Positions 809 through 64,000 of a stretch of DNA of 64,000 bases are shown here, in pieces (the first letter of the stretch is position 1; every line of letters starts with the position of its first letter). This DNA comes from Amphirosellinia nigrospora (lineage: Eukaryota; Ascomycota; Sordariomycetes; Xylariales; Xylariaceae). The notes under the pieces are model-generated. The model was not told the origin of the DNA, did not search any database, and saw only the letters and a list, made by a program, of their open reading frames with translations. The stretch lies in the NCBI GenBank assembly GCA_004123355.1, contig SCHM01000005.1, forward strand, positions 1,302,001 through 1,366,000. The letters are read 5' to 3'. A program made the translations under genes and the position numbers.

Positions 809-3092
809 ATGGAAGTCGAAGAAGAACCCCGCCGACGCCGTAGACCCGCCTTGTCATGCCTTGCCTGCCGGCGTCGAAAGTTGAAGTGCGATCGGGCCAA
901 CCCTTGCGCACGGTGTGTTCTTACGAACACTCGCTGTACGTTCCGTTTTTATGGCGATGAAACCTCTGCTGTCCGGACACACGCCCATAGGGATGGCGAA
1001 GGGCCCGTAACCGTAACCCCAAGTTCAAGAACCTCGCCTTTAACTAGTACTCAGGTTTTCGATAAAGACATACCTACTACTACAAATCATATACATCTTT
1101 CATCGCCACTGGTCGCAAGTACTGCAGCCCCAGTAGCTCCTCGAATTGAACATGCCAATAGTACTAGTCAGATTGGGTCTTTATATTTGACCCAGACCCA
1201 TGAGACGGCATCGGACTTTCGGACCTCCAACAACGTGTACGGAGGCTCGAGGAGTCATCCGTCTCAGACCCGGCTCGTGGCCTTGCTGAAACTGGACGGC
1301 ATATACTCGCACGCCAGGCTGGCCTTCGGGACTCGGAGATAATTCTGAAGAAAACACGACTGCTGAGATGGAGTGACTGGTTGGGTTTCGCGCCTGAGGT
1401 AAATTATTCCCAGCCCTCAGAAGCACCCAACTAACCAACTCATATAAGTTTGGTTCATCTACAAATGCTTCGAGGCAGTCTGTAGCAGTAGTGATGGCCC
1501 CTCTTCCCGAAATGGCGAAACAAAGGCTGTCATCCTTGAGATCGATGATCTCTATAAAAAATGCAAGAGGATTGCCAGAAGTCTCAAGGTCAATCGGCCT
1601 AGTAGATGTCTGACATCTCTCAGGCCAGATCTTGAGCCACCACCTCGTGAGCTATCAGACACCATGGTCAATGTTTACTTTCGCTGTTTTGAGCCGGTGC
1701 ACAGAATTCTTCACGAGCCTAGCTTCTGGACGGAGTATGAAAGATTCTGGGCGAGCCCGGAAACCTTTACTACAGGCCAGCGGCTCAAGGTACTTCTTGT
1801 CATCGCCATAGGATCAAGTCTTTGTGACGAGGGCGGCCCAGATAGCGAGCTGCGAGGCAATGTCCAACAGTGGATATACACGACCCAGCCTGGTTGTCTG
1901 GCCCTCTCGAAAAAGACCGCTTAGATATCCAAGGGTTACAAATCCATTGTCTAGCGATGCTTGCGCGGCAGATCTTCTCAGTTGGCGGCGATCTTGTATG
2001 GATGTCTATGGGCTCACTCATCCATAGAGCTATGCAGATAGGGCTACATCGAGACCCTAAACATCTTCCAACAATAAGTTTATTGGAAACTGAAGTCCGC
2101 AGGCGCCTATGGTATACGATTCTTGAATTGATTGTGCAATCCTCTTTGGACTCTGCAATGCCACCGCGCATATCGTTCGAGGACTTTGATACGGAGAGCC
2201 CCTCAAACAATAACGACGATGAGATGGATGAGTCCACCACAGGACTACTACCACATCCCAGAGAGAAGTATACGTCGACTTCTATACAGCTTCTATTGAT
2301 CAAGTCTCTTCCTTGCCGCCTCCGGGTCGTTCAGCTTTTAAACGGGTTACACTCCGAGCTAGCTTACCCGGACGTCCTCGCCCTTAGCTCGGAGATTATG
2401 AACGCCTGCCAGGCATGTAATATAGTTCATGGTGGAGAATAGACAGGCTGGAATAACAGCATTCCAACGTAACCTGTGCGACTTCTTGGTACGGCGGTTT
2501 TTGATCCTCTCCACTGCCCCTTCACTAGCGAGGCACGCTCCAACCCTTATTCCATTACTCGCAAAAGGTCACGCTAGACGCCGGCCTAGCTTTCGTATCA
2601 CCAGAGCCAGACGATTATTTCTCACGACTCCTAGCGACCGGCGGAGGGATGTATCGAGAGGGATTCAGGTGCGCAGCATCTGCTATTACTCTCGAGTCCT
2701 CATACAAGCCCAGACTCAGCGCGACGACGGCACTTTTCACACCAGTAAGAAGCAACTAGACTTCCTCAAGCAAGCCTTTAATGACTTTGGTGCGCTATCT
2801 TGGGAGCGTATTCGGCAAGGCGAAACTAATATCAAAGGTCCTATGTTTCTGGATATCGTTCTCGCTGTAGTGAATTCGCCAGACATAAATAACTTGTGTG
2901 AGTTGACAATGGCGAAGAACGCACGAGACACTCTGATTCTCTGTCATCAACTCTTAGAATCTCGGGCGAAGGCTTGCTTTGCCGTCCCCTATTGACGGCA
3001 GTTTAACATCGTCAAGTCTTGATGGCGACCGGGATGATTTTGGGTTGGACTTCAGCTTGGACTTCTTTTTCCCCAGCGCAGGTGAATGGTAA
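809..3092 (+). CDS. Zn2Cys6 fungal transcription factor (frame-broken copy)
   Basis: Predicted nuclear DNA-binding regulator. The start at 809 puts a basic arm directly before a complete Zn2Cys6 cluster, CLACRRRKLKC then CARCVLTNTRC, spacing C-x2-C-x6-C-x5-C-x2-C-x6-C. An in-frame Met at 764 is the alternative start. The middle region (about 1450-2450) reads as a fungal_trans domain: WFIYKCFEAV, CFEPVHRILHEPSFW, AMQIGLHRDP, RRRLWYTILEL. The C-terminal part contains FLVRRFLI, LHCPF, ATGGGMYREGFRC, SWERIRQGETN and an acidic/aromatic tail ending at 3092. One intron is visible (1399-1448, GTAAAT, branch CTAAC, acceptor AAG). The reading frame changes at about 1260-1310, the intron join, 1886, 2420, 2508, 2564 and 2697. 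At most of these one lost base in a short run (for example CAG-GCC read as CAGCC, or FLIPLHC losing one C) restores the family sequence. I therefore favour sequence error over true decay. Targets are unknown; the flavin monooxygenase next door may be one. Confidence 0.85.
1399..1448 (+). other. Intron in Zn2Cys6 gene
   Basis: Donor GTAAAT follows the codon for the Glu of GFAPE. CTAAC lies just before the acceptor AAG, and downstream coding resumes at TGG TTC ATC TAC. The phase fits only if one T is missing from the run at the exon start. Confidence 0.6.
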
Positions 3093-3805
3093 CACATCAT
3101 AAACTGTATAACAAACATCTTGCTACGCATCTCAAGACGATTATAATGCATGTACATTGTACCAGGTTGAACACCTAGCTAATACGCAACCCTCTTGTAA
3201 ATTAAATAATAGAATAGCTCTCTACGCAAAGGAAGAGAAAACTTAATCATAAATAACAGCATCGGCTTAGAATCTAAACTAATTTTCATCTCTACGGCTC
3301 GGATGAGTATAGGTGGGTAGGTTGTGCCCGAGTGTTTTGCCGGAGTCGCGATTTAATGCCACAGTACAGAAAAGTCTTCGATCGAAACCTGCAAAAGATG
3401 CCGTAGAAGAGGACCGAATCGGTCATCGGGCGCCACCCAATTTCCGCAAGCAATATTGTATGATACGCCCATTGGAGAAGTCATACGTACTCACACGTCA
3501 GGGGTCTGCTTCGGTGAATTCACGGTCTATTCGGTTATATCGGCCGGAATCAGAAACGAGGCCATTTAATGCGTGGAATTATCAACACTATATCTTCTAA
3601 TATGCCGACATGAGCTCATGCGTCTTAAGCTGACGCGTAGTTATAAATGATGCGTACGCCGGTTGCCTTCTACTTTCTTGCACTCGGCATCCAGTCCTTC
3701 ATTAGCAAGGCGAGTTAACAGCATTAAGTAACAACACCTCACATGCTTACATACATTTCAACCACCATTCCTCCAAAAACTTCGAAGACATACACAAACA
3801 ATATC
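3093..3805. other. Intergenic between regulator and monooxygenase
   Basis: No gene is supported. The 3' half should hold the promoter of the flavin monooxygenase. Confidence 0.5.
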
Positions 3806-5217
3806 ATGCCGCGCTGAAGGTTCTGATAAGCGGCGCCGGTATCGCCGGTAACGCGCATCGCCTTCTGGCTGTCAAAGATCGGCCACGACATCACCGTGGT
3901 CGAGCGATTCTCCAGTTTACGAGATACCGGCCTTCAACTGGATCCCGAGGCCACGGCATCCAAGTCATGAAACGCATGGGTCTGGAGGATGCCTTCAGAG
4001 CACACACGGCGCCAGAAAACGGGATACAACTCGTCGATAAGAAAGGCCGACGACGCGCCTACTTCCCCGCAACCACGCCTGGAGAAGGCGTGCAGAATTT
4101 CTCGAGCGAGTTCGAGATCATGAGAGGCCAAATGTGCCGCATATTAAGTGACGCCGCTGCTGGGTGCGGTACAAAGTTCATATTTGGAACGTCGATCAAA
4201 AGCCTCGAAGATAAAGGCAGCTCTGTGGCAGTCCAGTTTGCGGACGGCAAGACCGATTCATTTGACTTAGGTAAGTGATTCTCGGGTTTTTATCTAATTT
4301 CTCAATTTGCAGCTGTCTTTAGTATCACAATACATCCTTCTCGGTGACTTGAGAGGAGACAGCACTTACCGTCCCGGATGAAGAATTAACTAACGTTCAT
4401 ATTTGGCAGTTGTCGGCGCCGATGGCCTTAATTCGCGTACCCGCAAGATGATGGTCGGGCCGGGCGCCGACGACGGGCTCCGTCCGCTCAACGGCATGGT
4501 TGCCGGCTATTTCACAATGCCACGGCCCATGCAAGAGGGGAAGAATACTGTGCTACCGTCTACGTAGCGCCGGGCAACAGGGGGCTGATGATCCGAAGGT
4601 CCGATCCCAAATTCTGGCAGGTGTATTGTGGCGGCAAGACCGACGCCTTCAAGGACGTCTCTCGCGGCGACATCAAAGCTGAGAAAGCGGCCTTGACAAA
4701 GATGATGGACGGCGCAGGATGGGAAACCGAAAACGTCATGGCCTCCATGAATACGGATAATGATTTCTATCTCGAGCGCATGGCCCTCGTGAAGCTCGAC
4801 TGCTGGTATCGTGGTCGCGTCGCCCTTGTCGGCGACGCGGCTTGGTGCCCCACGGCGAATACGGGCATGGGCACGACTTCAAGCATGGTCGGCGCTTACA
4901 TCCTCGCCGGCGAGATTGCGAAGCATTGTGGGAGAGGCACCCCAGGGCCCGGTAAGCCCACATCCGACGCCAACATTGGGAAGGCTCTCGCTGGCTATGA
5001 TGCGACATTCCGACCTTTCATGGACCAGGTGCAGAAAGGGGTCGGCGAAGAAGATGGGACTAGCTACGCATACTCGCTGATGTCGTCCTCCATCGGTATT
5101 TCCCTGGTACACATCTTCGCCGGCATCGCGTCATATTTCAAGGTCAACATCGGCGCGATGATGCTGAAGGAACAAGTAAAGGATTGGGATCTCCCTGACT
5201 ATCAGGAGCTTTCCTAG
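3806..5217 (+). CDS. FAD-dependent monooxygenase (PHBH fold)
   Basis: Predicted NAD(P)H- and FAD-dependent aromatic hydroxylase/epoxidase of the flavin monooxygenase superfamily. All three family motifs are present: the Rossmann GAGIAGNA with LKVLIS just before it, the DG motif VVGADGLNSRTRK, and the GD motif RVALVGDAAWCPTANTGMG followed by a helix SSMVGAYILAGEIAKHCG. A single intron (about 4271-4409, GTAAGT to CAG) joins DL to VVGADG. The start at 3806 gives MP(R)LKVLISGAG. The frame breaks near 3813, 3860, 3944 and 4538. The last two are explained by a C missing from CCCC (LQLDPRGHGIQ) and a G missing from GGGGG (EGEEYCATVYVAPGN). The product ends DWDLPDYQELS. Substrate unknown. Similar enzymes occur in secondary metabolism and xenobiotic breakdown, but no biosynthetic core gene lies in this window. 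Confidence 0.85.
4271..4409 (+). other. Intron in flavin monooxygenase
   Basis: Donor GTAAGT and acceptor GGCAG give the join D-L-V-V-G-A-D-G, restoring the DG motif. Confidence 0.75.
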
Positions 5218-7911: not shown

Positions 7912-10203
7912 ATGACTTCTGCCATAGACAATACAGCTCGTGCGCTCATGGCGGCGCATGAGATATACGCCCGCGCAGATCTTACCGACCCAAATAAAGA
8001 AGGTCGACCCGCTTCCTTCAAAGCCATTGGTATCAGCTTGGCAGTCGGCTCGGGGCTCTTCATCGGGACATCGTTTGTGTTGAAGAAGGTCGGCTTGCTC
8101 AAAGCCAATGAAAAGTATCAACAGGCCGCCGGCGAGGGCTACGGCTACCTGAAGAATGCCTTCTGGTGGTCAGGTATGAGTCTGATGATCTTTGGCGAGA
8201 TCCTCAACTTCGTCGCATACGCTTTTACCGACGCTATTCTGGTTACATCGCTAGGAGCTATATCCGTTGTTATTGCCACGGTCCTCTCCGCCTTCTTCTT
8301 GAAGGAACGACTCAGTTTGATCGGCAAGGTCGCCTGCTTTCTTTGCATCGTGGGAGCCGTCATCATTGTCCTCAACGCTCCTACCGAATCATCTGTCGCA
8401 AATATCCAGGAGATGCAGATGTATGTTGTCACGCCTGTATTTCTATCGTATGCAGGTGTCATCATTCTGGTCTCTATTTTTCTCGCCTTCTGGGCCGGCC
8501 CGCGATATGGCAAGAAGAACATGTTTACATATATCTCCATTTGCAGTTGGGTTGGGGCCCTAAGTGTTGTCGCTACCCAAGGACTGGGGGCGGCGATAGT
8601 GGCACAGATCGGCGGCACTCCTCAATTCAACCAGTGGTTCCTTTACGTGCTCTTTGTCTTTATATTGGCAACGCTTGCGACCGAAATTATCTTCCTCAAT
8701 GTGAGTGTAGGCGAATCCCAGCCGAGGTTACTACTGACATAGCCATGTATAGAAAGCGCTTAATATCTTCAATGCGGCCATGGTCACCCCCACATACTAC
8801 GTCTATTTCACTAGCACTACAATCGTCACTTCGGCCGTGCTTTTTCGAGGCTTCAAAGGAACTGCAATCCAAATCATCACAGTTGTATTCGGATTCTTGA
8901 CCATCTGCTCCGGCGTGGTACTGCTGCAATTATCCAAGTCGGCCAAGGATGTGCCTGATACTGCTGTTTTCGCCGGCGACTTGGACCAGATCCAAACCAT
9001 TGTTGAGCAAGAGCAACCCGAGACAGAGCCCAAAGCTGATGCCTTGCGCGGCACGGCCGCGATCTTACGGCGAATCTCGACGGCTAGAACTAAAATGGAG
9101 CACGAGGAATTCAAACGTCTGCATGAAGAGAAAGAAATGGAACGGCTGGCCACAGTTAGCGAAGATGGCCAGTCTCAGCAGTTTGAGTGGGCTGGGCAGG
9201 AGGAGAACAACCATGAGTAGTACCAGGAGTCGTCCGTTTAGCCCCTAGTCCAGCTCAGACCCATCCACCGATGGGCCGAACGCGGTTACTGAGCGATGAG
9301 GAGATAGAGGAGCTTGAAAGGGAGCGGCAGATGTCGCCAGGCGTCCTTTCTAGCATTGCAGGCACTATTCGCCAACGTACGCGCAGTGTTTTGGTACATC
9401 GACCGGAGCTTCCTCATCAAGAGAGACCGGGCAACAGTGAATCTGTGCATCCAGTTCCCCTGACCCAGATTACTGTTCCTAGTCAAAAGTACGATACCGA
9501 AGCTAGCGCATACGGCTATGGATTGCCAGCCGGCTCACACCAGACCGAGTATGGCGGTGCGGCTAGTCTATCATCAAGAAACAGTGATCGTCATATACAC
9601 TTTACAGAGTCCCCGAAGCCGGGTGCCAGCGCCACCTCGCTCGTTCGCCGACGCTCCACCTCATGGAGAAGAGCCTCCTCGCTCACACGTCGGCAGTTCT
9701 CGTTCCAAAATGTATTCCGTCGGCATCAGGCTGACCGAGTACAGGATCCAGCGCTGCCGCCGATGCCCGAGCATCCATCCCGCCAAGGAATGAGGGGGCG
9801 AGGATACTCGGACCGGGGCGCCAAGGTGAAGAACGCGACTGAGGAGGAGAGGCTGGGGCTCGTCACCGGTGACTCACACTCGATGCCGGCACTACCTCGC
9901 TATGAGGAGAATTCAGACGACTGGGACGATGATGATGACGATGACGATGACGACGATATTTATCCAGATGAGAAACGAGAGGCGGGATATGGCAGAGTCA
10001 TTACAAGTAGTCCTCCTCGGAGAAAAGGCGACGAGAGTGATAGCAAAGCGGCCGAAGGGGCCACGCAGAACGTTGACCGGAGATGGGACGAGAGTCGGCA
10101 TCGGAGCGGAGACGGCTCGCCGCGGGGGACCCCGCCACCGCCACAACGACAGTCATATCGTCGCAATGCACCGTACGGTGGCGATGACGAAGCGTTTCTC
10201 TAG
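7912..10203 (+). CDS. NIPA-like magnesium transporter (DUF803)
   Basis: Predicted multi-pass membrane Mg2+ transporter of the NIPA family, within the drug/metabolite transporter superfamily. Exon 1 (7912-8700) encodes about six membrane helices, including AIGISLAVGSGLFIGTSFV, FGEILNFVAYAFTDAILV and the LGAISVVIATVLSAFFL-KERL motif. A canonical intron (8701-8752) leads to FLN-KALNIFNAAMVTPTYYV and the last helices (TSAVLFRGF, IITVVFGFLTICSGVVLLQLS). After about residue 340 comes a long cytosolic tail, as in filamentous-fungal homologues: a charged segment, then SITGTIR-like IAGTIRQRTRSVL, Ser/Arg-rich QFSFQNVFRR, TEEERLGLVTGDSHS and an Asp-only run (about 9928-9958). The frame changes twice between 9215 and 9271, so the tail join is uncertain. 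Expected in plasma or endosomal membrane. Confidence 0.88.
8701..8752 (+). other. Intron in NIPA gene
   Basis: Donor GTGAGT, branch-like CTGAC, acceptor TATAG; it joins FLN to KALNIFNAAM in frame. Confidence 0.9.
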
Positions 10204-16940: not shown

Positions 16941-16942
16941 TA

Positions 16943-18760: not shown

Positions 18761-20077
18761 ATGCTTTGTGAGGAATGTAGTCGTATTTGCAAGTCATCAA
18801 GAGATCGCATGTAAGAATCCCGCATGTGCACTCATGTCAACTTTTTGCCACCAGCTCATACACCTGGTAACTAACTAATCAGTAGTCAGCATAAACGCTG
18901 TCACGTCAAAAGATTCCCTGTATGAAGGAGTCATGTCTTCGGAAACCCAATCAAGTCAGTTTCAGCACCAAGAGAGACTTGACCCGACACCAAGACCAAG
19001 TTCATGGCAATAAGATCACGCAGTGCCCGTACTGTTCAATAGGCATGAAACGACAGGATAACCTCGGAAGGCATATTACAAAATTGCATGGAGAAGAACT
19101 ATTAGTTACCGCCACAGGCGACGATGAGGCCGTCATCAAGCTAGTGCTCGCCAAGGGAACCAAGATCGAGTCAACAAGGGGATCCAACAGTCAGACACTG
19201 TTGTCGATAGCGGCAGCAGATGGTCGCGAGTCGTCGTCGAACTACTGCTTGGTAAAGGAGCTAATATCGAGTCCATAGATAATGAGGGTAAAACGCCGCT
19301 GTACTGGGCTGCCTTAAAGGGGCATACGCATATTGTTGAACTACTGCTCAATAAAGGAGCTAACATTGAGTCGAAAAATCGCTACGATCGGACGCCGCTA
19401 AGCAGGGCTGCTTTAAACGGGCATACGCCTGTTGTTGAACTACTTCTTAATAAAGGAGCTAATATCGAGTCCATAGATAATGAGGGTAAAACGCCGCTGT
19501 ACTGGGCTGCAACAAACGGGCATCCGCCTGTTGTTGAACTACTGCTCAATAAAGGAGCTAACATTGAGTCGAAAAATCGCTACGATCGGACGCCGCTAAG
19601 CGGGGCTGCTTTAAACGGGCATACGCCTGTTGTTGAACTACTTCTTAATAAAGGAGCTAATATCGAGTTTAAAGATAATGAGGGTAAAACGCCGCTGTAC
19701 TGGGCTGCAACAAACGGGCATCCGCCTGTTGTTGAATTGCTGCTCAACGAAGGAGCCAACATTGAGTCGAAAGATCGCCGGGGTCAAGCGGCACTAAGCT
19801 TGGCCGTTTTCAACAAGAATATACCTGCTATCGAATTACTGCTTAGTAAAGGAGCTAATATCGAGTCGAAAGATCGCCGCGATCGGACGCCTCTGATATT
19901 AGCTACTGAAAACAGGTATGAAGCGATCGTCAAGTTGCTGCTCGATAAGGAGCGAATATCGAGTCGAAAGATGACCATGGTCGGACGCCTCTGATGTTGG
20001 CTACTGAACGCGGGTATGAAGCGATCGTCAAATTGCTCCTTGATGCTCAAAAGAACTTAGCCCTCGCATCTTATTGA
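18761..20077 (+). CDS. C2H2 zinc-finger/ankyrin-repeat protein
   Basis: The start at 18761 gives MLCEECSRICKSSRDR. An intron (18811-18885, GTAAGA, CTAAC, TAG) joins to IQHKRCHVKRFPCMKESC. Two C2H2 fingers follow: FPCMKESC...FSTKRDLTRHQDQVHG and QCPYCSIGMKRQDNLGRHITKLHG. The rest is an ankyrin array of about nine repeats with the consensus GANIES-KDN-GKTPLYWAA-NGH-PVVELLLNK, ending in LLLDAQKNLALASY. Three 198-bp units (two repeats each) at 19257-19850 are nearly identical. Frame breaks near 18918, 19230 and 19947 each fit one missing base (FPC needs CCCC; REVVVELLL needs GG; LLDKGANIES needs AAA). Such finger-ankyrin proteins are common, variable and poorly understood in filamentous fungi. 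The role here is unknown; ankyrins imply protein binding and the fingers nucleic-acid or protein binding. Confidence 0.82.
18811..18885 (+). other. Intron of zinc-finger/ankyrin gene
   Basis: GTAAGA donor after CGC-AT, CTAACTAA branch, acceptor AGTAG. The phase-2 join makes R-I-Q-H-K-R-C. Confidence 0.7.
19257..19850 (+). repeat. Three tandem 198-bp ankyrin-coding units
   Basis: The landmark GGAGCTAATATCGAG recurs at 19257, 19455 and 19653, exactly 198 bp (two 33-codon ankyrin repeats) apart. The units differ by only a few substitutions, which indicates recent duplication or homogenisation. Confidence 0.9.
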
Positions 20078-20773: not shown

Positions 20774-21721
20774 TTACGCCAGCGCGGTCCTCCAGCCTTT
20801 CATGCCGCTCTGCTCCTCTTCGGTCAATTGGATATCAAAATATTTTTCCAGAGCAGCAACCCTCTCCTCCTCCGTCTTACACTCGTAGATGACGGCGGTC
20901 TTGCCGCCGAGATTCTCCTTGACGAGGCCATTCACCAGCATGCGCTTGCCATAGATCTCCTCGACGCCGTCGTCGCGCGTCCGGCGGAGGAACTTGATGG
21001 CAATGACGGTCAGGGTCTGCCAGGACCTGGGGCTCGTGCTCGCGTAGACGTTGATGACCTCCCAGTCGTTGGGCATGAACTCGACCATGGTGAAGCAGTA
21101 GAAGGGGTTCCACTCGAGGTCGGGCCCGTTGCGGTACTCGTAGATCCAGAGCTTGGACTCCTCGGTGCGCTTCAGCTGGGTGGGGATCCAGTCGTGAACC
21201 AGGCGGATCTGCTGGGCGCCTATGTTCTGGTGCACGAGGCCGTCGACGACGGGCATGGGCGTGGCGCAGTCGCCGCCGAAGGCGATGTCCACGTGGTACT
21301 TTTGTCCGTCGATCTCGACGATGCTCACGATGTGCACCCAGCCCGGGAAGTCGCCCCTCGGAACGCCCCCCTCGCGCAGACGCGTCCGGACGCCGACGGT
21401 GTACGAGTCGAAGCCGAGACCGACCAGCATGTGGTTGTACAGGATGGCATTCTCCATGCAGTAGCCGCCCCGCCCTCGCTTGTTCAGTACGATCTTCCGG
21501 AACAGGAACTCCGGATTCAGCTCGACAGCATGCTTGGGGTTATAGTGTATGGCCAGATTCTCATACGGCACAGCGGCCAACATGTAGGTGTGCAGGGTCT
21601 TCAGCAGATCATAAGATGGGGCCGCATGGTGATAGCTCTTGGGGATTTTGATATAATCCAAGAACTGGTCAATCTGCTCCCTGGTATACGCTGAGGAAGA
21701 TGACATGATCAATCGAGTCAA
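20774..21721 (-). CDS. Arylamine N-acetyltransferase family enzyme
   Basis: Cytosolic acyltransferase that moves an acyl group from CoA to arylamine or hydrazine nitrogen; some fungal members use malonyl-CoA to detoxify aromatic amines. The gene is one uninterrupted frame of 315 codons. The Cys-His-Asp catalytic triad is visible: Cys in RGRGGYCMENA, His in GWVHIVSIV and Asp in YHVDIAFGG. The N-terminal motif VPYENLAIHY and the C-terminal extension are as in fungal family members. The better start may be the sixth codon (MSSSSAYTREQ, 21706) because the five residues before it are not family-like. It ends MKGWRTALA. It is one of the few long genes here free of frame breaks. The neighbours are unrelated, so it is not part of an evident cluster. 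Confidence 0.93.
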   Translation of the reverse strand: MTRLIMSSSSAYTREQIDQFLDYIKIPKSYHHAAPSYDLLKTLHTYMLAAVPYENLAIHYNPKHAVELNPEFLFRKIVLNKRGRGGYCMENAILYNHMLVGLGFDSYTVGVRTRLREGGVPRGDFPGWVHIVSIVEIDGQKYHVDIAFGGDCATPMPVVDGLVHQNIGAQQIRLVHDWIPTQLKRTEESKLWIYEYRNGPDLEWNPFYCFTMVEFMPNDWEVINVYASTSPRSWQTLTVIAIKFLRRTRDDGVEEIYGKRMLVNGLVKENLGGKTAVIYECKTEEERVAALEKYFDIQLTEEEQSGMKGWRTALA

Positions 21722-22595: not shown

Positions 22596-23737
22596 ATGGT
22601 ACGTTAGCCCAACCCCTGGTCTTGAACACCCAACTGACCGCATATTGCGGACGATAGGCCACAACATCCAAGCAGCGCCTGGCGCTTGCCATCTGCGATT
22701 TCCTATCCAGCTCGCTCGAAGACGGCACCTTATCCTCGGATGACAAGGATAGCATCGATGTCGCCATCAACTGCATTGCTGAGAGCTTCAAGGTCGACCC
22801 CGCCGACAAGACCGCCGTACAATCCGCCATCGGATCGCAGAACCTCATGCAGATCTACGGCGTCTACGAGAAACTCAAGTCATCAGGGAAACCTCCATCC
22901 TCCGCCTCCGCTTCCGCCTCCTCCGCTGGCGCCAGCGCCGCCGCCCCGAAGGTCCCCACCGACCAAGAAAAGGCCAGCGCCGAGGAACTCAAGGTCCAGG
23001 GCAACAAGGCCATGACCTCCAAGGACTACGCCCGCGCCATCGACCTGTACTCCCAGGCCCTCGCCCTGCACCCCGGGAATGCCATCTTCCTATCCAACCG
23101 CGCCGCCGCCTACAGCGCCGCCCGGGACCACGAGAGCGCCCGCGCCGATGCCGAGGCTGCCGTCGCCTCCGATCCCAATTATACCAAGGCCTGGTCGCGT
23201 CTGGGGCTTGCGCGGTTCGCCCTCGGCGACGCACGAGGTAGCATGGAGGCCTACAGCCAGGGTATCGACCACGAGGGCAGCGGCGGCTCCGATGCCATGA
23301 AGAAGGGCTTCGAGACGGCGAAAAGGCGCGTCGAGGAGCTCGAGGCCGAGGAGCGTGATAGCAGCAATCCCATCCCGCGCGGTCCTGCCGGCGGCGTTAA
23401 CGCCGGGGCGGGCGGCGGCATGCCCGATCTGAGCAGCCTGGCAGGCATGTTCGGCGGCGGTGCTGGTGCCGGAGGTGGTGGCGGCATGCCCGATCTCGGT
23501 TCCATCATGAGCAACCCCATGTTCGCAAACATGGCACAGAGCCTCATGTCGAATCCCGATATGATGCAGAACTTGATGAGCAACCCTCGCCTACGGGAGA
23601 TGGCCGACCGTTTCACCCAAGGCGGCGGCATGCCTGACATGGCTTCCTTGATGAACGACCCCAACATTGCTGAGATGGCCCGGAATATGATGGGCGGAGG
23701 TGGCCGCGGGGGTCCTCCGGGCTCCGGCGGACAATGA
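22596..23737 (+). CDS. sgt2: Small glutamine-rich TPR co-chaperone SGT2
   Basis: Cytosolic co-chaperone that receives tail-anchored membrane proteins and passes them to the GET pathway, binding Hsp70/Hsp90 through its TPRs. The initiator ATG (22596-22598) is followed directly by an intron (22599-22657). Exon 2 begins ATTSKQRLALAICDFLSSSL, the N-terminal dimerisation domain that contacts Get4/Get5. A linker rich in Ala/Ser leads to three TPRs (about residues 100-215): ELKVQGNKAMTSKDYARAID, PGNAIFLSNRAAAYSAARDHESA and TKAWSRLGLARFALGDARGSM. The C-terminus is Gly/Met-rich with repeated NP(M)F/NPRL-type motifs (SNPMFANMAQSLMSNPDMM, MNDPNIAEMARNMMGGGG), the substrate-binding domain. No frame break is seen. 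Confidence 0.95.
22599..22657 (+). other. Intron directly after the start codon of SGT2
   Basis: GTACGT donor adjoins the ATG; CTGAC branch; acceptor ATAG. The join makes M-A-T-T-S-K-Q-R. Confidence 0.9.
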
Positions 23738-24488: not shown

Positions 24489-27400
24489 CTAAACGCGAAA
24501 GGACGTATTTAAGACAGGAAAACGAGAAGAAGGCCTCACGTCGGCCCGGTGTGTGGGTCTGGGCGCCAACGACGGCTGTGGTTTGCTGATAGCCAGCTTA
24601 CCTTGGTTCTGTTTTGGATTGGATGTGTTGCGCCGTCCTTTCCCACGATAACGGCCACGATGACCTCGACCGCGGGAACCTCTACCACGAGTGGCTACCG
24701 GTATAGTTTTAGCCTCGACCATCGCTTCCTTGGGCGTGCCGGGCTTCTCGTCAAACTGTGCCTGCATTTTATACCGAACTTCAGGAGCTACGTTCTCCAC
24801 ACGAGACGGTGAAGACGCTCGCGGGTTTGGTTCGGGCTGACTAACAGAACGTGATGGGCTGCAATGAAGAGGAAGCAGAGAAGGGTCCGGGCAGGAAACA
24901 GATTGCGACGTGTTGCGACGAGGCCTAGGCTCGGAGGAATCCGAAGCGGCTGCCTCCATGGTCACGTCAAAGTTATTAGGCGAAGCAGCAGCTGTGTTCG
25001 GTGGAGCTCGAACGTAATTGTGAGATGTGTCCCATTCCGGGCTAGAGCTCAAGTCGCCCACAGGAGCCTTTGGAGGTAACGTGACCTCGTCTTCGACATC
25101 TTCGGCCCAGCTACTATGGATTGGAGATGCAGACGCCGGCTGGATTGCGCGTAAGGTGCGTGGAGTGAACTCCGGTGCGCCGGGATTCAATCTTGAGCCC
25201 TACAAGTCAGAGATTAGTATCAATCAAAAAATCAAGATTGATTTTTTGACGGATCTACCTCTTTCCTGTGCGCAACCGGAGTATTCCTATCCTCGCCCTC
25301 AGCCGTGTCCGATCCATTCACCTCCACTTCTACTTCCACTTCGTCCACTGTAGAAAGTGATCCTACCGCCTCAGACGGGCTAGCTTCGCTCACCTCACCG
25401 TCGGTGAGCTCATTCGTTGCCCATTAGGTATATGCAAAGATGTTTTAGCAATATCAATACCCTCTTTTCGCTCTTTAGGCCTGACAAAGAGCTGTTTAGA
25501 CCACAGTTCCGCATATTTACCATTCTTAGCGATCAGTTCCTCGTGGCTGCCTTGCTCTACGACTTGGCCATACCACGACGAAGATGATGTCGGCATTCAT
25601 CACTGTTGATAGACGATGGCTATATAAATGTTAGTCATTCCCAGCAGCTACGAGTCTCTAGTTCCAAAGAACTTACGCCACAATGAATGTTGTCCGATTG
25701 TCACATAAAGCACGTAAGCCTTCCTGAATTTTATGCTCTGTATCCGTATCGACAGCACTTGTTGCCTCATCTAGAAGAACGATCTCTGGATCTTTGAGTA
25801 TGGCTCGAGCAATAGCAACTCGTTGCAGCTCTCCCCAGATAATTTCCTGTTACTTGTTAGTGAACACATTCATTCCATTAGGCCAGGGAACTTACACGCC
25901 GCGCTCTCCAACTCTAGTTTTATATCCCTCGGTGAAGCCCATAATCTGGTCATGAATGGCAGCGGCTTTACAAGCGGCGTAGACTTCTTCATCAGACGCA
26001 TCCAGCCGAGCGTACCTGACATTGTTGATCACAGTATCGTCAAAGAGAATAGGAGACTGAGGAACGATGCCGATACAGCGCCGCAAGCTATACAGTCGTA
26101 ATCAGCAACACGAATTCAAACGAGCTCAACTTAGGAGGGTTTTAAACTAGTTCCCTTACCTAGATAATGTGACATCCCGGATATCTTGGCCATCTATCAA
26201 GATCGAGCCACCGGTTACGTCGTAGAATCGATCAAGCACTTTGAATATAGTCGATTTTCCGGCGCCTGTTGCCCCTACGAAGGCAACAGTAGTGCCAGGT
26301 GGTGCAGAAAGCTTTACGCCCTTCAAGATGTCCTTCTTCTTGTCGTAACTAAAGCTGACATTACGAAACTCAACCTTCCCACCCTTGAGTTTCAGAGGCT
26401 TGGCACCAGGTTTGTCGACAACGGTGGGTTTGGTTAGCATCACTTCTAAGAGCCGTTCGACTTGAACTAAACTTTGGCTGATGTTTCGTCCCATGGTAGA
26501 GAAAAACTGCAGGGGTGAGGTAAGCTGGCTCCAATACGTCAAGAGCATGACGAAGTCACCTGGCGTAGCCTTCTTCTGGGTGATCTGGTAGACAGCCAAA
26601 AATGCACCAGCAAGCAGGCCCGCGGTGAGAATTAGGTACTGGAACGCTTGTCCGACAAGATATCCCATAGAAATAGACTTGTAGGCCTCGACCTGAGACT
26701 TTACGGCTTTACTATACCGGCCCTCCTCGTATGGAACTTGGTTGAAGGCGCTCACAGTGTACCAGCCTTGGATACCGGCTTGGCGAGTGTAGTGCTCCTC
26801 AAAATATCTATCCAGGTATTAGAGTGTCTCCTAGATGAGGTGTAGGATAACTTACGTGCTGACCACTTTTTTTCTCTTCTCCTTAAACTTCGAAATGAGC
26901 CGAGCAGCAGACTGGATGAATGCTATGCCTGTAGCCATGGTGATAAAACCTTCATACGGACCGAATTTGACGGATAGATATGTAAAAGCCACAACCAAGT
27001 CAATAACCATTGGGACCGCCTGAAAGCAGATGGACTCCAGTAGGCTAGTGATATGGTAACCATTCGAAATGGCTACTTGGATATCAGACGAGCTCTGGCT
27101 ATCGTGGAATTCGGATGACAGGTTCATAACATGCGAATATGCCGCCACGCTGAGGGCCTCTTGGGAGTAGTATTCAACCGGCATCCAAAGCATGTATCGG
27201 ATCAGAGGAAGACCAGCTTCGGATGACAGAATTCGGAGGACTGCGAATATCATAACCTGCACCCAAGGGCTTTCTTTCGATATGCCTCCCAGTGAGTCCA
27301 GTACAGCACCATACTGACGAGGTATCAAGAAGTTTAGCCCATTGCCAGCGAGCAGGCATAGACCTACGAGGAGGACATGAAATTGCAAGCGACGGTTCCC

Positions 27401-54066: not shown

Positions 54067-57000
54067 ATGAGCCGGAAACCAGGCAAGGCTCGTGCCGCCA
54101 GCAGCAAGGCCGTTCCCGGCTTCGGCGCAACCACCTTCGGCAGCTTCGCGTCGGCTGCGAGCGGCACCAACCTTTCATATCTCGCCGAGCCTCCCGACTT
54201 CTCTTCCGTGTCCGACGCCAATGTCATCGTATCCCTCAAGAACCTACAGAAGAAGGACGCCACCACCAAGGCCAAAGCGCTCGAGGAACTACTTGCCATG
54301 TGCAAGCCCACCCCTATGAGCAGGACGGCGGCGTCGAGGAGCCCGTGCTGAAGTATGGGTAAGTTTACCAAGCCCGCCTCGCCTCGGCTCTCTCGTAGTA
54401 ACAGTAATGTTGTCGCAGGTCCAGTTATATCCTCGTGTGTCGATAGACAACTCGAGGCGCGTGCGCGAACTATCCCATACTCTTCAATTCGAGCTCATGA
54501 AGTCCGCCCGCAAACGAATGGAAAAGAATGTGCCCAAGATTGTGGGACCCTGGCTCGCAGGTACCTTCGACCGGGACAGGGCTGTTTCGAGAGCCGCTGC
54601 TGAAGGTCTCTCGTCCTTCCTCACCACCCCGAGAAAGTCGCTCAGTTTTGGAAGCGCTGCCAGCAGCAGATCCTCGACTACGCCGACGGTGCCGTTAAGA
54701 GACACCCGAAACATTAAGCGATCGTCGCTCCACCAACTCCGACGATGCAGATGCGAAATACTTCAGAGTTCTTGCTGGGTCTCTTGCACTGGTTTTAAAC
54801 CTCCTCCAACAACTAAGCACCACGGAGACGGAGAAATGTATGGACAGCTATGATCGATTCTTCGAAAATGACAAGGTGTGGATCAGCGTGACTCTCGACG
54901 ATCCACCGTGAGGCGGCTTGCGTCTCAGCTCTTATCAGTGAGTGTCGAGGTGAGGCCAGGTCGAGTCGAGGCCGATTTGTCTCGCATCAGCAAGGCGTTT
55001 GTGGCCGAGGGTCTTAAAAGCAACCAAACCGGTTCCGCTATTGACTATATTGATGCCCTGATCAAAGTGACCGTGAAATACCCAACAGTTTGGACTTCCG
55101 ATTATCGAAGCAAGAAAACGCCCATCTCGCGGCTTAGGATCTTCCTCGAGTCGGGCTCACAAAGTGGCCCGTCGCACTATTGGGCCAGACTTACTCAACT
55201 TTGGACACAATACCCAGTGACATATTTCCTAAAGATACCGATGGCGCCCTAGAACTCTTAAAGTCCATGAGAAAGGGAATCACGAGTCGAGACGAGCCTC
55301 GTGCCAATGCTGTCGAAGCTTGGTCCGCGTATCTTAGCCTAGCGAGGCACTTTCTACAAATAGCTCCATCCAGTGAGGCACGTCTCACGTTTTGTCAGGA
55401 CACTATCTTCCCATTGACATCACATTACCTCTTTCCATCGCCTGAGACGTCGATTTGGTCGTCGGGAGCCAGCTACCCATCCTGATCAAAGCGTACACCT
55501 CAACTACAACACTACCCTTCGAAGACCTAGTAGAAGTTACAAAGCTGGAATGGGATCGGCTAAAAGATGAGCTGAATGATCATATCCGCAACTCATTGCC
55601 AGAATCGTCAAAAGAGCACCATAAATCCCAGAAATCGGTAGCTGATGAGGGAGTAGATGGTTCTCTCTGATTGGTAAGATTCTGGATGCACATGAGAAAA
55701 CTGTAGCAGGTGACCGTCCATCCCAGATATCCCAACTCCATTGTCTCTGAAACTGCTTGAAGATGGCTTCAAACTACTCAAAATTAGGAATTGGAAACCG
55801 TTCGGTACTGCTATGGTCGTGGAATCCGCGTTTAAACAAGCACCTTTGCTTTTCAAGACTCATTCCTCCGCCAAGGCATACTTGATCAGCTGAATAATTG
55901 TCTCGCGGAGGGTCGAGAAGGGTTTCTGAAGTCATCGAGCGCACCGCACATCTTTTAGCATAACGCTTCTTGGTAAAATACCTCAGCGCCACAGCGAATT
56001 CGAACACATATGGAAATCTAGCATCTCGGTTGTTATGGAATGCTTGGACACCGCAGAAGCTATGCCTGCATTGAGTAAGCTCATTTCGAGTCCTCAAGCA
56101 GCCTTAATTGCGCTACAAAATCCCGACCTACAGGTGGAACTCATCCGCAGGTGCTTGATGTGTGCCGTAGGGAATGAAGGTCCAGTTGGGATTTATTTAA
56201 TAACGTGTTTGCCTTCGGGGCATTGAGCGAAACTGCCTCGAGCAAACTTGCTAAAGAGCTTAAAATCGTATAACAAACTCTTCAGGAGAGCCGAATAAAG
56301 GCGTTCTCAAAGCACTACGGATACTCGCAGAGAACAAAAAAGAAATATTGATGCAAGATGCGAACTTCACTTGATATTAGTCACGAGCTTGCTGAGCCTC
56401 TCAGAAAAGGGAAGCGGCTCCGAAGTGGCAATGTTGCAAGCATTGCTGGACAATCATTCGAGCGGGAAATCCAATGCTCATATTCTCATTCAGCAAAACG
56501 TTAATAATGCAAACTCAAATTCCCTCTCGTATGTATTCTTCCAGATTTTTTGTCATCGTTATATCTAATCTCTTTGCAGGTCGACACTCTTGTTCAGCAA
56601 GCCATGCAAGCACAAGAAATGCTCCGAACTTGTACACAAGATGCAAACTTGAATACACAGTTGCTTGCTCTTTTACCGGACGTCGCAACATGGAGACAAC
56701 AGCTTTCAGCCCTCTTCCAGGAAACCCCCATCCATCCTTAGCACTTACGAACAGTCTTGGGGTTCATGTTTTTTGCGACGGGCCAACCCGTAGGTTAGAT
56801 ATAAAAGTACAACGTGATATCCGAGGTTGCTCTATACCTGGTCGTATGGCTCTATATGTTACCAAACTTATCTCTTCTGGGTTCGATTTCAATCTTGCGG
56901 ACATTTCTACGAGGCTGATTTGGTTATAAGTTTAAGTTTGACGGCTGAACTGGCTGTAGATCAACTTACAATACTCAGCGATGACGCCTTTGCGTTCCAT

Positions 57001-59158
57001 ATCTTCTCACGATGCCCAGTCAGATCTAGAGAGCCTGGTTGTCTCTACTCAACGGTATATTATAGGTATGGCCGAGGATGCTCAAGGATGGCGTGATGGA
57101 ACCGGCACCGAGATGTCGCGGCTATTGCACTCCATTATTGGAAAATTAGCGGAAGGATCTCGTGTTTTGTCAGCTTTAGGCTTCTATTCTGCACGATCAT
57201 TGCAGACTTTTCTTCAAGCATTGACAGAGAGACATGGTTTTCCCAAGTGGTGAGCAATGGTTGGCCAATATGGACTATTTCAAGTCATCCCCTTCGACAG
57301 TATTCCAGCAGCCGCAATGTTAGCGGGCTTGGTGAGACTGTTTCAACGTCTAAAACTAAATAATTTTTGCAACCGCTTGGTGAGCGATATCGCCGGAGCT
57401 AAGCCTGGCCAGGAGAAGAGTTTGATCACGCTCATCTTGCTTAACCTTTGCATGCAAGTCTATGATATTGGTGAGCTACCAGTTGCAAAACAGGCTGGTG
57501 TTCGCTGTTAAGCAAATCATTTCTTGGCTGGATACGCCAGAAGATTTTGAGACCTCATTTGCTACGGAAGCCTGCCGTTGCTTGCAACGTCTTCTACCGT
57601 GTATCAAAGACGTATATGGGTCCTACTGGGAAAAGCCGTGGAATTCTGCATTTTTCTTTGGACGAAATCTCCCACCCAACCACTCGATGCTCGTTTACCA
57701 GAAATACATGCATCGCTACGCCTCATGGTCATCCTCCAATCGTTAGAGGATCCAACGATGATCTAGTAGACGCTCTAGACACTTCTGCGGAGAAAAGATC
57801 GGCTGCCCTAATCGACCTTCTAAAGCTGCCTAGAGAAAAGCATACCCAACCACTCGATATAGTAGATGCCATTCTTTGCAGGCAAGTTGAAAAGTTACCC
57901 CTCCAACGTTATGACGACCTCTCGGAACTCTACGGATTGGTGGCTAGTGATTCTCGCGCCATCCAGACGGCAGCGTTTACAATCTTAAACAGGCGCTTCC
58001 AGCTGCCCAAGAGACGATTTCCGTTGACGTTCTGTTAGAGAAACGAGACGCACGACTCCCAGATGAGCTCTTATCGCTTCTTCTCGATGCCCCGACATTG
58101 AGTTTGTACCCCGATACAGTCATAGCTCAATTCCCGACCCCAGTCCGCTCGTATCTGCTATCCTGGCACTTGGTATTTGATGTTTTTCAAGCTGCGTCCT
58201 TCAAAGTGCGAAGCGACTATGCTGAAAATCTGAAGGCTGAGGATTACGTCAGCCCTTTGATGAACTTCACTTTTGATGTATTGGGTCACTCAGCAGCCCA
58301 TGGGCTAAACCTAGACCGAGCAGGTTTTACAGCAGAAAACATCCGACATTACGATTTGAAATTGGCCGAATCAGAATCGGAAGAGAGAAACATGCAGTGG
58401 CTCTTCATACATATATATTATCTGGTCCTTAAATTTGTGCCAGGGCTTTTCAGGGCGTGGCACATTGGCTGTCGGTCAAAGCAGACCAAAATTGCGGCAG
58501 AAGGATGGATGGCGAGATACTTCTCTCCAATCGTCATCTCCGAAGCTTTGGACGACGTAGTTAAATGGAACGACAGCCAAGAAACGCCGGCAGATGACGA
58601 GAAAGAGTTGATTGTGAAGGTCAGTCGGCAGCGAGGGAAGTCATTGCTGGATATGAAGTGGATGATCTCCAAGCCTCGATCTCTATTCGAATACCCCCTG
58701 AGTTCCCACTTGAAGCCGTCACGGTTGTAGGAATCAATCGTGTTGCGGTAGATGAGAGGAAATGGAAGAGCTGGATCTTAACCACGCAGGGTGTCATTAT
58801 GTTCTCGGTACGTCCCCTTACGCCAATTCCATCATAATCCCTTTCTACGAAAACAGTTTGGTACAAAGTTTAGCTAACATGCGCAAAACAGGCGGCAACA
58901 TAATAGACGGCCTAGCCGCATTCCGCCGAAACGTTATCGGGGCTCTCAAGGGCCAGACCGAATGCGCCATTTGCTATAGTATCATTAGTACTGACAAAAA
59001 GATGCCAGACAAACGCTGCCAGACATGCAAGAATCTCTTCCCCGCACCTGTCTGTACAAATGGTTTCAGAGCAGCAATCAGAACACATGTCCCTTATGCC
59101 GGAATCCAATCGACTACTTGGGTGCAGACAAGGCAAGGAGGGTGGCGTTGGCGCTTAG
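54067..59158 (+). CDS. ltn1: Listerin-type E3 ubiquitin ligase (RQC)
   Basis: Very large cytosolic E3 ligase of the ribosome quality-control complex, which ubiquitinates nascent chains stalled on 60S subunits. The N-terminus is diagnostic: FGATTFGSFASAASGTNLSYL, ANVIVSLKNLQKKDATTKAKALEEL, and after an intron (54359-54418) VQLYPRVSIDNSRRVRELSH, LMKSARKRMEKNVPKIVGPWL. The middle is alpha-solenoid (HEAT-like) across several frames. The C-terminus is the RWD/RING part: FRRNVIGALKGQTECAICYSII, RCQTCKNLF, RTCLYKWFQSSNQNTCPLCRNPIDYLG. The gene is broken into at least ten frame segments. Those I could resolve fit one missing base (EELLAHVQAHPYEQ needs CCC; VLKVW needs GG). The end at 59158 assumes one more missing G (KARRGGVGA); as read, the last frame stays open to 59270. 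Confidence 0.88.
54359..54418 (+). other. Intron 1 of listerin gene
   Basis: GTAAGT to CGCAG, 60 bp; the join KVW-VQLYPRVSIDNSRR is the conserved listerin sequence. Confidence 0.8.
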
Positions 59159-59692
59159 ATTGGATATATGGCAACATGTAAGACGTCTGTCTGTCTGCAT
59201 GTTCAATAAAGTCAATAGTGCACATACGTTATGGCAATGGAAAAAAAAGCATGCTGATCATGCATCCTGACGACCAAGGCCAACCCATGCTCTACATTTC
59301 CACCTGCTAGCACACAACGACATCTTTGACTTGCTCCACGGTGATATAGGAGCCTAGAAACACTAATGCAATTTACCTGTCAGGCAGTCCCCGGTAGCCA
59401 CTCCCATTGTTGGCGAGCCGCTTGCCAGAGAGCAGGTATTACACAGTCAATGATGTCAGCAGCATACGTATGGCAACTCCTACCATGGTGAGAGTTCAAT
59501 GCGGGAAGGCTACATTACGTACTCCCACTAGCTGTTAGATTCTTCTCGCTTTCGAAATATGAATAGAGTGATTCACTCCATGGTCGCGCCACCTACACCT
59601 CACCTTTTTACGAATTTGTCATAGCTGACACGAACGCTTTGCCGTGAACATTACCTGCATTGCTACTTGACCCCCTTCAGACTATCACCATC
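59159..59692. other. Intergenic
   Basis: 534 bp between listerin and the next gene. No feature recognised. Confidence 0.45.
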
Positions 59693-61094
59693 ATGTCGCT
59701 GCTGCATCGATGGTCCCTGCCGAGCCGGGGCTTGACCCGTGACAAGTCTCAAGACGGGAAATCCCCTGACAGGACCAAATTCCCTACTGTCCACGTCGGT
59801 CAATCAGGGCCGCGTCGAAGGGGCAATCTCGCATCCGCTTTCTCCACGCTGTTCGAGAAGCCCGAGGATCGTCGAAGCGCACAAGACTCTGAGCACCGTA
59901 GTCCGGCTGTTGCTGATCTACCACAGTCCGTACATCGCCATGAGAATGTACCGCCTAACACAAACTCAGAGTACTCGCATGCCCATAAGTATCAAGACAA
60001 CAGCCCCATCGAAAACGTTGCTCTCCGGGAAAGTGGCGGCTTTGAATCTACAGGGAAGCGGGTTGACTTTGATAGACCTAGACCTCTATCATCCCTACGT
60101 CAACGGCGCTCAGTCAAGTCACTCAGGTCAACGAACCATTAAAGGCCCGTTCTTTCAAGCTCTCAAGCACTAGGGCCGATGATAAGAGTGATCAAGATGA
60201 GTCGACCAAACCAACGGGCGACTGTGTGAGAGTTCGCTCTGCGTCATCCTCCTACCCATCTGAAGTATACGTTCTCCCGTCGCTGGATTTCGTTCTCCAG
60301 AGCGGCGACCACCCGCTCAACAAACTACTTGTCTGAGTATCGGCGCTATGGCCAGTATCCTTCTCACAGCACGTGGCAACTATCCAGTATGGAACAAGTC
60401 AATCCTCAAGTGGGCTTGCGGTTAGAGAAGGCGCTCGGGCTGCTCTGGGTACCGGTGACACCATCTCTAGCTCTACAGCCGCGGGCCAGGGCTCCGGCCC
60501 CGTGACCTCCCCCTTCGTCGATCGGTCTCGAGACGATACGGGGTCAACGGAACCAGATACGGCCCAATCACAGTACACGCCTACAGTTACTCGCAGGGTG
60601 GAACAACAGCAGAAACCGTCGTCGGCCAGTGAGATGACGGTGCCAGTATTAGAGAACGAAGAGGCCATCTCTTCCCAACTTGACGTGAACTTCATGAGCT
60701 ACAAACAACCGAGCGCTCAGAGCACGCCTACTAATGACCATGACGACCATCTCGAAGCTAGCACAGCCCGCTCAGTAGACGGTCTACGTCAGAGTGTAGA
60801 TGCGAATCGATCGATGCCTACGGTAGTGAGATACCCTAGCGTATCCGACGCAGCCACGAGTTACGTCTGGCCTACCCCAGTGAATTAGGAATAGGAGTTT
60901 ATCCTCCGTATCACCCAGCGGCGTGGGTAAAATACCTCACCAAGCCCACCCCGCATGTGCCCGTAGACAACTTTGCCCAGCGTGTACAGACGTGGAGACT
61001 GCGGAAATGGACCAAGAGGGGTGTTTCCGAACCAAGGCCCATTTCGAACTCATCGGCAAGCCATTCCGGAGTCCAGGCGCAGAGCAGAGCCTGA
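59693..61094 (+). CDS. Conserved unknown, mostly disordered protein
   Basis: I do not recognise a named family. The start at 59693 gives MSLLHRWSLPSRGLTRDKSQDGKSP. The protein is polar and Ser/Arg-rich (RRRGNLASAFSTLFEKPEDRRS, KRVDFDRPRPLSSLRQRR) with a more ordered piece SYPSEVYVLPSLDFVLQSGDHPLNKLL and SEYRRYGQYPSHSTWQLSS. A Gln/Ser/Thr-rich part follows, ending in ELGIGVYPPYHPAAWVKYL, PHVPVDNFAQRVQTWRLRKW. Three frame segments (breaks near 60110, 60335-60380 and 60885) are joined on the basis of continuous coding character. No signal peptide, membrane helix or catalytic motif is visible. Confidence 0.55.
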
Positions 61095-61650
61095 AGAAGT
61101 AGAGCCAACAAGCTGGGAGAATACCCCGGCCGGTCCGGATGATTGGTAAAGAGAAGGAAGGTAGCGTTTAGTTAGTGACCAAGGGTCCTATTACTGTCCC
61201 TTTCGTATAGGATTGTAATAGGCGCTGTTCAGAAGCGACTACGGGTTTAGGTCATAGAGGAGGTGCGCAAAGCAATATGGTTTTTAGGTGCTGGTACGTC
61301 AGGGACTAGATTACTATACCAGGGTGCTTTGTCGCACCGTCGACACCATCGTCGATGTTGAGACAGCGTGCTTCTCTGAGAAGAACATGGTAGTGTGTGC
61401 ATCTAGAAATATGGCGAGAGGAGAGACCTGGGCACCTATATTACTTAGGGGGCAAAATCCTACGTCTCTGAGCAGAGCCTGTATGATAGAGAACCAGTCA
61501 CACACATCTTTCAAGAATGGAGGATGATTATGATGCTAATATATGACTTATCCTCCTCAAAATTCTTTCCCATCAACCTAACTCCAGAGTTTCCGACCCA
61601 GTGCCAGAAGAAATCACGTCCAATCATCAGCTCACGACCATGGTGGCCTC
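61095..61650. other. Convergent intergenic region
   Basis: No gene recognised between two converging genes. Confidence 0.45.
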
Positions 61651-62162: not shown

Positions 62163-63085
62163 GATGTCGGTCTAATGAGTTAGGTAGGCGTGGATGATAG
62201 TGAATAGAAGGTTGTGTGTATGTGATGAGATACAACTTTGTCGTGTAAGTGAGCAATAAGGTTAGGTGGTATTCATTACCCGATATGAGAAAGCCGCCGT
62301 CTCCCATCAAGCGGAGTCGACCATGTAAGGATGCGGAGTTTTGGAGTTGCATTGGGGTTCCGTCTTAGATGCACTGTCAAGTTCTATTAGGTACATTGGA
62401 GAAGTTGGTCGTGTATGATCTGAGGTGGTATCACTAAGGGGCTGAACGCTTTTTGGAAGGAGAATCTTGTCATACGACTCAGCATGGAAAACGTGTCGCT
62501 AATAAGGACTTCCCATGTTGACAATAACCAGACAGCACGACAGGCAGTCAAGCATCTTGACTATGAATTTCTAGAGACACCTATGGGAAACGCGGACCTT
62601 AAAAGATGATCTAGGCGGGTTACCTACGGCGAGTCGCCTACAAAAACGACCCCATCACTCGTATGAACGCTATTCATCACAGGTAGATTCCTATTCTAAT
62701 GTACATTGGCTGGTGATGAATATGAGTTAAACATATTTGAGTGACACAGTATGGTGTTTCCTTCGTCAAAATCCAAGGTGCCATCAACAATCGTTCTCAC
62801 GCCTATACACTTCCAGGTCGCTCGCAGAGCAACCCAGCTAGCCAAACAATAGGCAGGGTTAAAATACAAACCTATCTATCCTCCGTTGGCCTGGGGAACT
62901 CATCTCATTCTCCATGTGCCGGTTTTGTACCCCCAGTGACCTTAGGCGCTGAGAGAGCAGGCTCTCGGCGGCAGCCGGGTGCCGTTGATGAGGCCAGAAA
63001 ATGCGTTACCACCATATCCCACATCGCCTTTATTCAGTTTATCATACTTATCGATTTGACCATCGTAGCCATCCACGCGGACGGG
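62163..63085. other. Intergenic
   Basis: No supported gene; a weak plus-strand frame at 62741-63154 has no recognisable motif. Confidence 0.45.
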
Positions 63086-64000
63086 TTACTGGAGGCCTGG
63101 GTTGTTGGCGACTCGTCTGAGACGATTCGAGGGATTGCGGTTGTGCAGCCCTAAAGCGCCACTCCCGTCTTCCATGGGCCTTCTCGTCTGGCTCCCGAGA
63201 CACCAAACGGTAGGGCTCCACCGGCGTGAGATCGCCGGCGAGGCCATGCGGGAAGGGTACCCCGACGGGCTAGGCGATACAAAGCCCTCTGCTATATCCA
63301 AGGCACGACCTGCGCCGCCAAAGTAAAATCCGGAGCTTCGTCTTCTAAAAGCCGCATCGGCGGCTAGACTAGCACCGGGCCCCGTTCCATTAGACGATGG
63401 CGGATGCATCATCCGAATAGCCTTGTACGGTGTGAACCTAGGCTCCGGAGCGTGATTTCATTTTGAAGCTTCTCTTTCCCGTCGGGCACACGATTGGCAA
63501 AAACGACCCTAATGTTTTTGTATAAGTAGAAGCGACCTCGTGAGGGACAACATATATGCAAATGAACAAGATATCTGAGAATGGGGCGGTCTGCCGATGA
63601 ACTACTTTTCAAGTCGGGCATATTGTCAATAATTGGACCTTTGGAGTAGCTACGTTGCCGCACAAAAGTCTTGGTGCCAGGTTCATCCCGGCGAGATCAT
63701 AGGGAACCAAGAATAACTTAACCGCTGTCCTATTCGGATTCTTGATGATGATTTGAATTTGCCCCTTCTCGGGATCCGGTAGCTTCCGCCGGAGGTGCTC
63801 GCGGCGAACCAGACGCGCGTTTCGTTCTCTGGGCTTTACGAGCGTCCCAACTGGATAAATTCGCGTCAGATTGATTTGCATCTATCACATCCGTGCCAGC
63901 CGCTCTCCTGCTCTGATGTTTCCTTTTTGATCGAACCTCGTCCCCTTGATTAGGCAAACCATTCTCTAAATCAATCTGTCCTACGTATGACTCGGCCCGT
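63086..64000 (-). CDS. ATOS/FAM214-like protein (DUF4210), C-terminal part
   Basis: Partial gene entering from the right edge on the minus strand. The conserved C-terminal block is clear: PEKGQIQIIIKNPNRTAVKLF, LVPYDLAGM, GTKTFVRQRSYSKGPIID, RPILRYLVHLHICCPSRGRF and YLYKNIRVVFANRVPDGKEKL, followed by PEPRFTPYKAIRMMHPP and a Gly/Ser-rich tail ending NNPGLQ. Animal ATOS proteins are nuclear co-regulators; the fungal role is little known. Frame breaks at about 63684 and 63447 each fit one lost base (MEPGTKTF needs GG; TLPEPRF needs CCC). Upstream of 63800 the sequence is basic and disordered (KRKHQSRRAAGTDVIDANQ). Confidence 0.85.

What the first reader, a model, noticed from the sequence alone, without database searches (positions are those of the whole stretch)
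809..63900. Window-wide one-base losses in homopolymer runs break most long genes
At least fifteen frame changes, in ten or more unrelated genes, each disappear if one base is added to a run of identical bases, and the restored protein then matches the family pattern: for example 1886 (CAG-GCC), 2507 (FLIPLHC), 3944 (LDPRGHG), 4538 (EEYCATV), 12793, 13013, 19230, 19947, 25834, 27478, 44507, 48047, 52766, 54297, 62064, 63447 and 63684. Independent decay of housekeeping genes (listerin, ATOS, ABC transporter) with this one mutation type is implausible, so an unpolished assembly is the simplest reading. A few changes (about 2420, 9215, 46890) are net +1 and less clear.
Basis: partly seen in the sequence, partly recalled or inferred. 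Interest (0 to 1): 0.7.

Follow-up and report, generated by a model that had tools for sequence, protein, structure and literature searches.

The report
Assembly indel errors, not gene decay
The broken reading frames in this fungal DNA are almost certainly small insertion and deletion errors left in a genome assembly, because the same breaks turn up in essential genes elsewhere in the genome; this is an ordinary data-quality problem, not new biology.

Summary
The window is part of an 11-contig, 48.1-Mb fungal assembly. Its frame changes are real, but not all are indels. Where a profile, a solved relative or a repeat anchors both sides, 8 changes in about 7.6 kb of matched DNA leave no room for an intron; the NIPA change is a genuine intron (net +52 bases).

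The same breaks occur elsewhere in HSP70, CCT chaperonin, HSP90, glucan synthase, RNA polymerase second-largest subunit and myosin genes. Of 47 adjoining match pairs, 30 leave no room for an intron, and 18 of these are short by exactly one base; they lie at 16 loci on six contigs. The one HSP90 locus found has changes in both directions. Dispersed 5S rRNA genes also vary in length, mostly in short runs. Local decay, programmed frameshifting or introns alone do not fit all this.

'Unpolished assembly' is supported. 'One-base losses' is too narrow, and 'mendable in a run' is weak evidence alone. Reads and platform could not be checked.

The parts
1835..1902 (+). frame change inside the Fungal_trans domain of a Zn2Cys6 transcription-factor gene; no room for an intron
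   Evidence: PF04082 positions 2-54 and 83-221 in two frames, net -16 bases
3943..3960 (+). frame change inside a FAD-dependent monooxygenase gene; no room for an intron
   Evidence: PRK05868 positions 14-48 end at 3955 in one frame, PF01494 position 50 starts at 3958 in the next
8701..8752 (+). genuine intron in the NIPA magnesium-transporter gene (contrast case)
   Evidence: PF05653 positions 4-232 and 229-293 in two frames, net +52; intron also placed here by the coding model
19932..20029 (+). ankyrin unit of 98 nt after seven units of exactly 99 nt: frame change
   Evidence: unit lengths; TRF period 98 versus 99
25820..25846 (-). frame change at the signature motif of an ABCB6-like ABC transporter gene
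   Evidence: alignment to human ABCB6 and three-frame reading
25847..25895 (-). 49-base intron that, together with the adjoining frame change, keeps the unspliced frame open
   Evidence: donor, branch-like and acceptor sequence visible; coding model; 17-residue insert against ABCB6
54304..54415 (+). intron-sized insert plus possible frame change in the listerin N-terminal domain
   Evidence: PF22958 positions 3-48 and 65-138, net +64
54638..54698 (+). frame change in the listerin N-terminal domain; no room for an intron
   Evidence: PF22958 positions 65-138 and 161-192 in two frames, net -5; the second match is weak, E 0.002
56154..56178 (+). frame change in the listerin-region repeat domain; net one base short
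   Evidence: PF23280 positions 1-77 and 70-104
56237..56261 (+). second frame change in the same domain; net one base short
   Evidence: PF23280 positions 70-104 and 97-138
57984..57996 (+). frame change in listerin sixth domain; net one base short
   Evidence: PF22999 positions 3-33 and 30-220
20777..21721 (-). open gene: arylamine N-acetyltransferase, 315 aa
   Evidence: PF00797 positions 4-237 of 240 in one frame
22658..23734 (+). open gene: SGT2/SGTA-like co-chaperone, 359 aa
   Evidence: SGTA_dimer and TPR matches in one frame

Best explanation
The frame changes are residual single-base (and a few larger) insertion and deletion errors of the consensus sequence of a long-read assembly that was not, or not sufficiently, corrected with accurate reads. 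Base calling miscounts bases, preferentially in short runs of one base; the consensus keeps some of these errors; each one inside an exon shifts the frame, and gene prediction then sees broken genes. The window is a typical sample of its genome, not a decaying region. Shown here: no-intron frame changes across the genome, in essential genes, in both directions. Inferred: that accurate reads would disagree with the assembly, and that long reads were used.
For: (1) 30 of 47 adjoining pairs of matches to HSP70, CCT, HSP90, glucan synthase, RNA polymerase Rpb2_6 and myosin profiles leave no room for an intron, 18 of them net -1; 13 fall in an intron-like class of 38-152 bases; 4 are outliers (from; 41.4 kb matched). 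They lie at 16 loci on contigs C1, C4, C5, C6, C7 and C8. (2) HSP90, for which one locus only was found, has nets of -1, +1 and +4; the DNA at the junctions shows changes in both directions (read against the HSP90 sequence from recall). (3) Density in the window (8 in about 7.6 kb matched) resembles the genome sample (30 in 41.4 kb). (4) 5S rRNA genes: 31 of 33 matches are 115-120 nt long, 11 of them 120 and 20 shorter; in 21 aligned copies 14 of 21 single-base gaps fall in runs of three or more, which hold 22 of 120 consensus bases. (5) No second copy of the listerin region at DNA level. (6) A nanopore-only assembly of a hypocrealean fungus showed the same symptom before short-read polishing (PMC7500977, passages only; also PMC9453082, passages only).
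Against: No reads or second assembly were available. Run lengths in 238.8 kb of GC-normal sequence are only slightly depleted (C/G runs of 7 or more: 5 seen, about 11.7 expected; A/T runs of 7 or more: 45 seen, about 29.7 expected), so there is no strong global run shortening. A coding model with frameshift states used introns for almost all changes in the window and a frameshift only once (its intron prior was lax and not trained). Several genes are open: two CCT loci, one HSP70 locus and ABC matches in open frames of up to 1153 aa. 5 of the 7 single-base gaps outside runs of three or more in 5S are at one column shared by several copies and may be true variants.
Confidence: 0.96

Rival explanations
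1. Genome-wide programmed ribosomal frameshifting or transcript slippage: the DNA is right and the cell reads across the shifts.
For: The changes lie in essential genes that must be functional, and the unspliced DNA is certainly out of frame there.
Against: Changes go both ways in one gene (HSP90); the five fetched junctions share no evident motif (read by eye; not tested formally); 5S rRNA genes, which are not translated, vary in length too; many genes are open.
Confidence: 0.01
2. Real decay of this region (pseudogenes or a degenerating duplicate).
For: Contig C7 ends and some stretches are AT-rich with a RIP-like signature.
Against: The window has normal GC and no second DNA-level copy of its listerin region; the breaks are as common in essential genes on five other contigs; RIP makes C-to-T changes, not indels (established knowledge).
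Confidence: 0.02
3. Overlooked introns: the frame changes are ordinary short fungal introns.
For: True for some: NIPA net +52, listerin net +64, the 49-base intron of the ABC gene, and 13 of 47 pairs genome-wide.
Against: 30 of 47 pairs and 8 places in the window leave no room for an intron.
Confidence: 0.01

Closest known systems
Uncorrected indels of long-read (nanopore) fungal assemblies, as described for Drechmeria coniospora (PMC7500977, passages seen)
   Same: Frame-breaking small indels in conserved genes across the genome, mostly in runs of one base, with chromosome-scale contigs.
   Different: Platform and polishing history of the present assembly are unknown; here losses predominate (18 of 30 net -1), whereas that paper reports more insertions than deletions introduced by polishing.
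Programmed frameshifting as in Euplotes ciliates (recalled, no call)
   Same: Genes genome-wide read across frame changes.
   Different: There the shift is at fixed motifs and one-directional; here changes go both ways and non-coding 5S genes are affected too.

Membership tests
Residual assembly indels | Not confined to one region or gene class | tested here: met
   16 loci on six contigs in six conserved families
Residual assembly indels | Hit genes that the organism cannot lose | tested here: met
   HSP90 (one locus found), glucan synthase, RNA polymerase second-largest subunits; essentiality is general knowledge
Residual assembly indels | Mostly single-base | tested here: met
   18 of 30 no-room pairs are exactly net -1
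Residual assembly indels | Preference for runs of one base | tested here: inconclusive
   5S: 14 of 21 single-base gaps in runs of three or more; global run spectrum only slightly depleted; fetched 5S copies were picked towards short ones (16 of 20)
Residual assembly indels | Also in non-coding genes | tested here: inconclusive
   5S lengths 115-120 in 31 of 33 matches; some copies may be true variants or pseudogenes
Residual assembly indels | Accurate reads disagree with the assembly | not testable with these tools
   no reads held
Programmed frameshifting | One direction of shift | tested here: not met
   nets of -1, +1 and +4 in HSP90
Programmed frameshifting | Common site motif | tested here: inconclusive
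   five junctions read by eye, none evident; no formal test
Local pseudogene decay | Intact functional copy elsewhere or dispensable genes | tested here: not met
   one DNA match only for the listerin region; essential genes broken as often elsewhere

The most novel reading that the evidence does not exclude
The assembly is right and this fungus tolerates frame changes genome-wide by reading across them (programmed frameshifting in both directions or transcript editing).
Probability: 0.01. Interest if true: 0.95.

Novelty: not a real feature. Interest (0 to 1): 0.06.

Why it matters
It is a warning about the source: gene counts, 'pseudogenes', family losses and any frameshift-based finding from this genome are unreliable until it is corrected. 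The profile-junction arithmetic used here (net offset near -1 versus 40-150 bases) separates indels from introns without reads.

Tried and rejected
A coding-potential decoder with intron and frameshift states explained nearly all changes in the window as introns and used one frameshift; the intron prior was lax and I did not tune it, so I set it aside in favour of homology. Run-length spectra against a second-order model gave only a slight depletion of long C/G runs. tRNAs were not informative, since types differ in length. Pfam found no family for the glycosyltransferase-like gene at 11700-13800, the gene at 46700-48600, or the regions 48000-50200, 50200-53000 and 59600-61400, so the listed sites there rest on inspection. 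A plasmid search with the N-acetyltransferase only confirmed its family. The other frame of the ABC gene had no solved relative. The organism was not identified beyond a filamentous ascomycete (inferred).

Full report
What was asked.

Where the window lies. It is C7:1302001-1366000 of a 48,114,038-base genome in 11 contigs. Zn2Cys6 and Fungal_trans domains, dispersed 5S genes and a RIP-like signature in AT-rich blocks point to a filamentous ascomycete (inferred). GC of the window is 0.49.

Checking the observation. I printed the three frames on the gene's strand around the 17 listed and 3 unclear sites. A frame change that vanishes on adding a base to a nearby run is not specific, because short runs are everywhere (28,145 of 64,000 bases lie in runs of two or more, from the counts). 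I therefore asked, for matches of one protein profile in two frames, whether the DNA between them has room for an intron. In the window the nets were -16 (Fungal_trans), -5, -1, -1 and -1 (listerin region), against +52 (NIPA) and +64 (listerin), which are introns or contain one. Three more no-room changes come from the FAD monooxygenase, the ABC transporter against human ABCB6 and the ankyrin array, where seven units of 99 nt are followed by one of 98. That makes 8 in about 7.6 kb of matched DNA (my sum of matched residues). The match after the net -5 place is weak (E 0.002).

Is it local? No. The same arithmetic on HSP70, CCT, HSP90, glucan synthase, Rpb2_6 and myosin head gives 47 adjoining pairs in 41.4 kb: 30 with nets from -10 to +8, 18 of them exactly -1; 13 from 38 to 152, the intron class; and 4 outliers (-56, -31, -22, -20). 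Four of the 30 rest on long overlaps or a 151-base unmatched stretch and are weaker; all 18 at -1 have DNA gaps or overlaps of at most 31 bases. The 30 lie at 16 loci on C1, C4, C5, C6, C7 and C8. These searches score only the best candidates, so counts are lower bounds. Some loci are open (two CCT loci and one HSP70 locus in one long piece; ABC matches in open frames of up to 1153 aa).

Direction. HSP90, found at one locus only, has nets -1, +1 and +4. Its junction DNA and two HSP70 junctions show, read against these conserved proteins from recall, changes both ways. So 'one-base losses' describes most of them but not all.

Non-coding genes. Of 33 5S matches 31 are 115-120 nt: 11 of 120, 12 of 119, 3 of 118, 2 of 117, 2 of 116 and 1 of 115; two are 127 and 132. 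I aligned 21 (20 fetched, of which 16 were shorter than 120 by choice, plus one held). Of 23 gaps 21 are single-base; 14 of these 21 lie in runs of three or more of the nearest relative, which make up 22 of 120 consensus bases. Five of the other seven share one column and may be true variants; pseudogene copies cannot be excluded. I take this as support, not proof.

Results against. The run-length spectrum shows little depletion, and an untrained coding model preferred introns. Neither addresses the no-room junctions.

Known comparison. [quoted passage not shown] after long-read polishing roughly one-fifth had an incorrect sequence; short reads corrected them. PMC9453082 (passages) says small indels frequently lead to frameshifts and reports a large gain of complete genes on polishing. 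The present case matches in kind; the platform is unknown.

Verdict. Residual assembly indels, genome-wide (0.96). The finding is ordinary and is no feature of the organism.

Noticed in passing
L011 (C7:1-10000), L024 (C7:1450001-1460000), L028 (C5:3000001-3010000), L029 (C6:3000001-3010000): 4 of 19 sampled 10-kb stretches have GC of 0.088-0.112 with RIP-like dinucleotide indices (TpA/ApT 1.20-1.25; CpA+TpG over ApC+GpT 0.18-0.28), a very low GC for nuclear fungal DNA (recalled comparison).
   Followed up: partly
L012 (C7:200001-210000): The first 4 kb have GC 0.15, the rest about 0.48 with open frames of 616 and 592 aa: perhaps a young mobile element beside AT-rich DNA.
   Followed up: no
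window 25820-25895: A 49-base intron and the adjoining frame change together keep the unspliced frame open, so that a stop-based scan would miss both.
   Followed up: partly
genome-wide 5S rRNA genes: Two or more 5S subtypes differ in paired positions of a stem while the rest is conserved (alignment).
   Followed up: no
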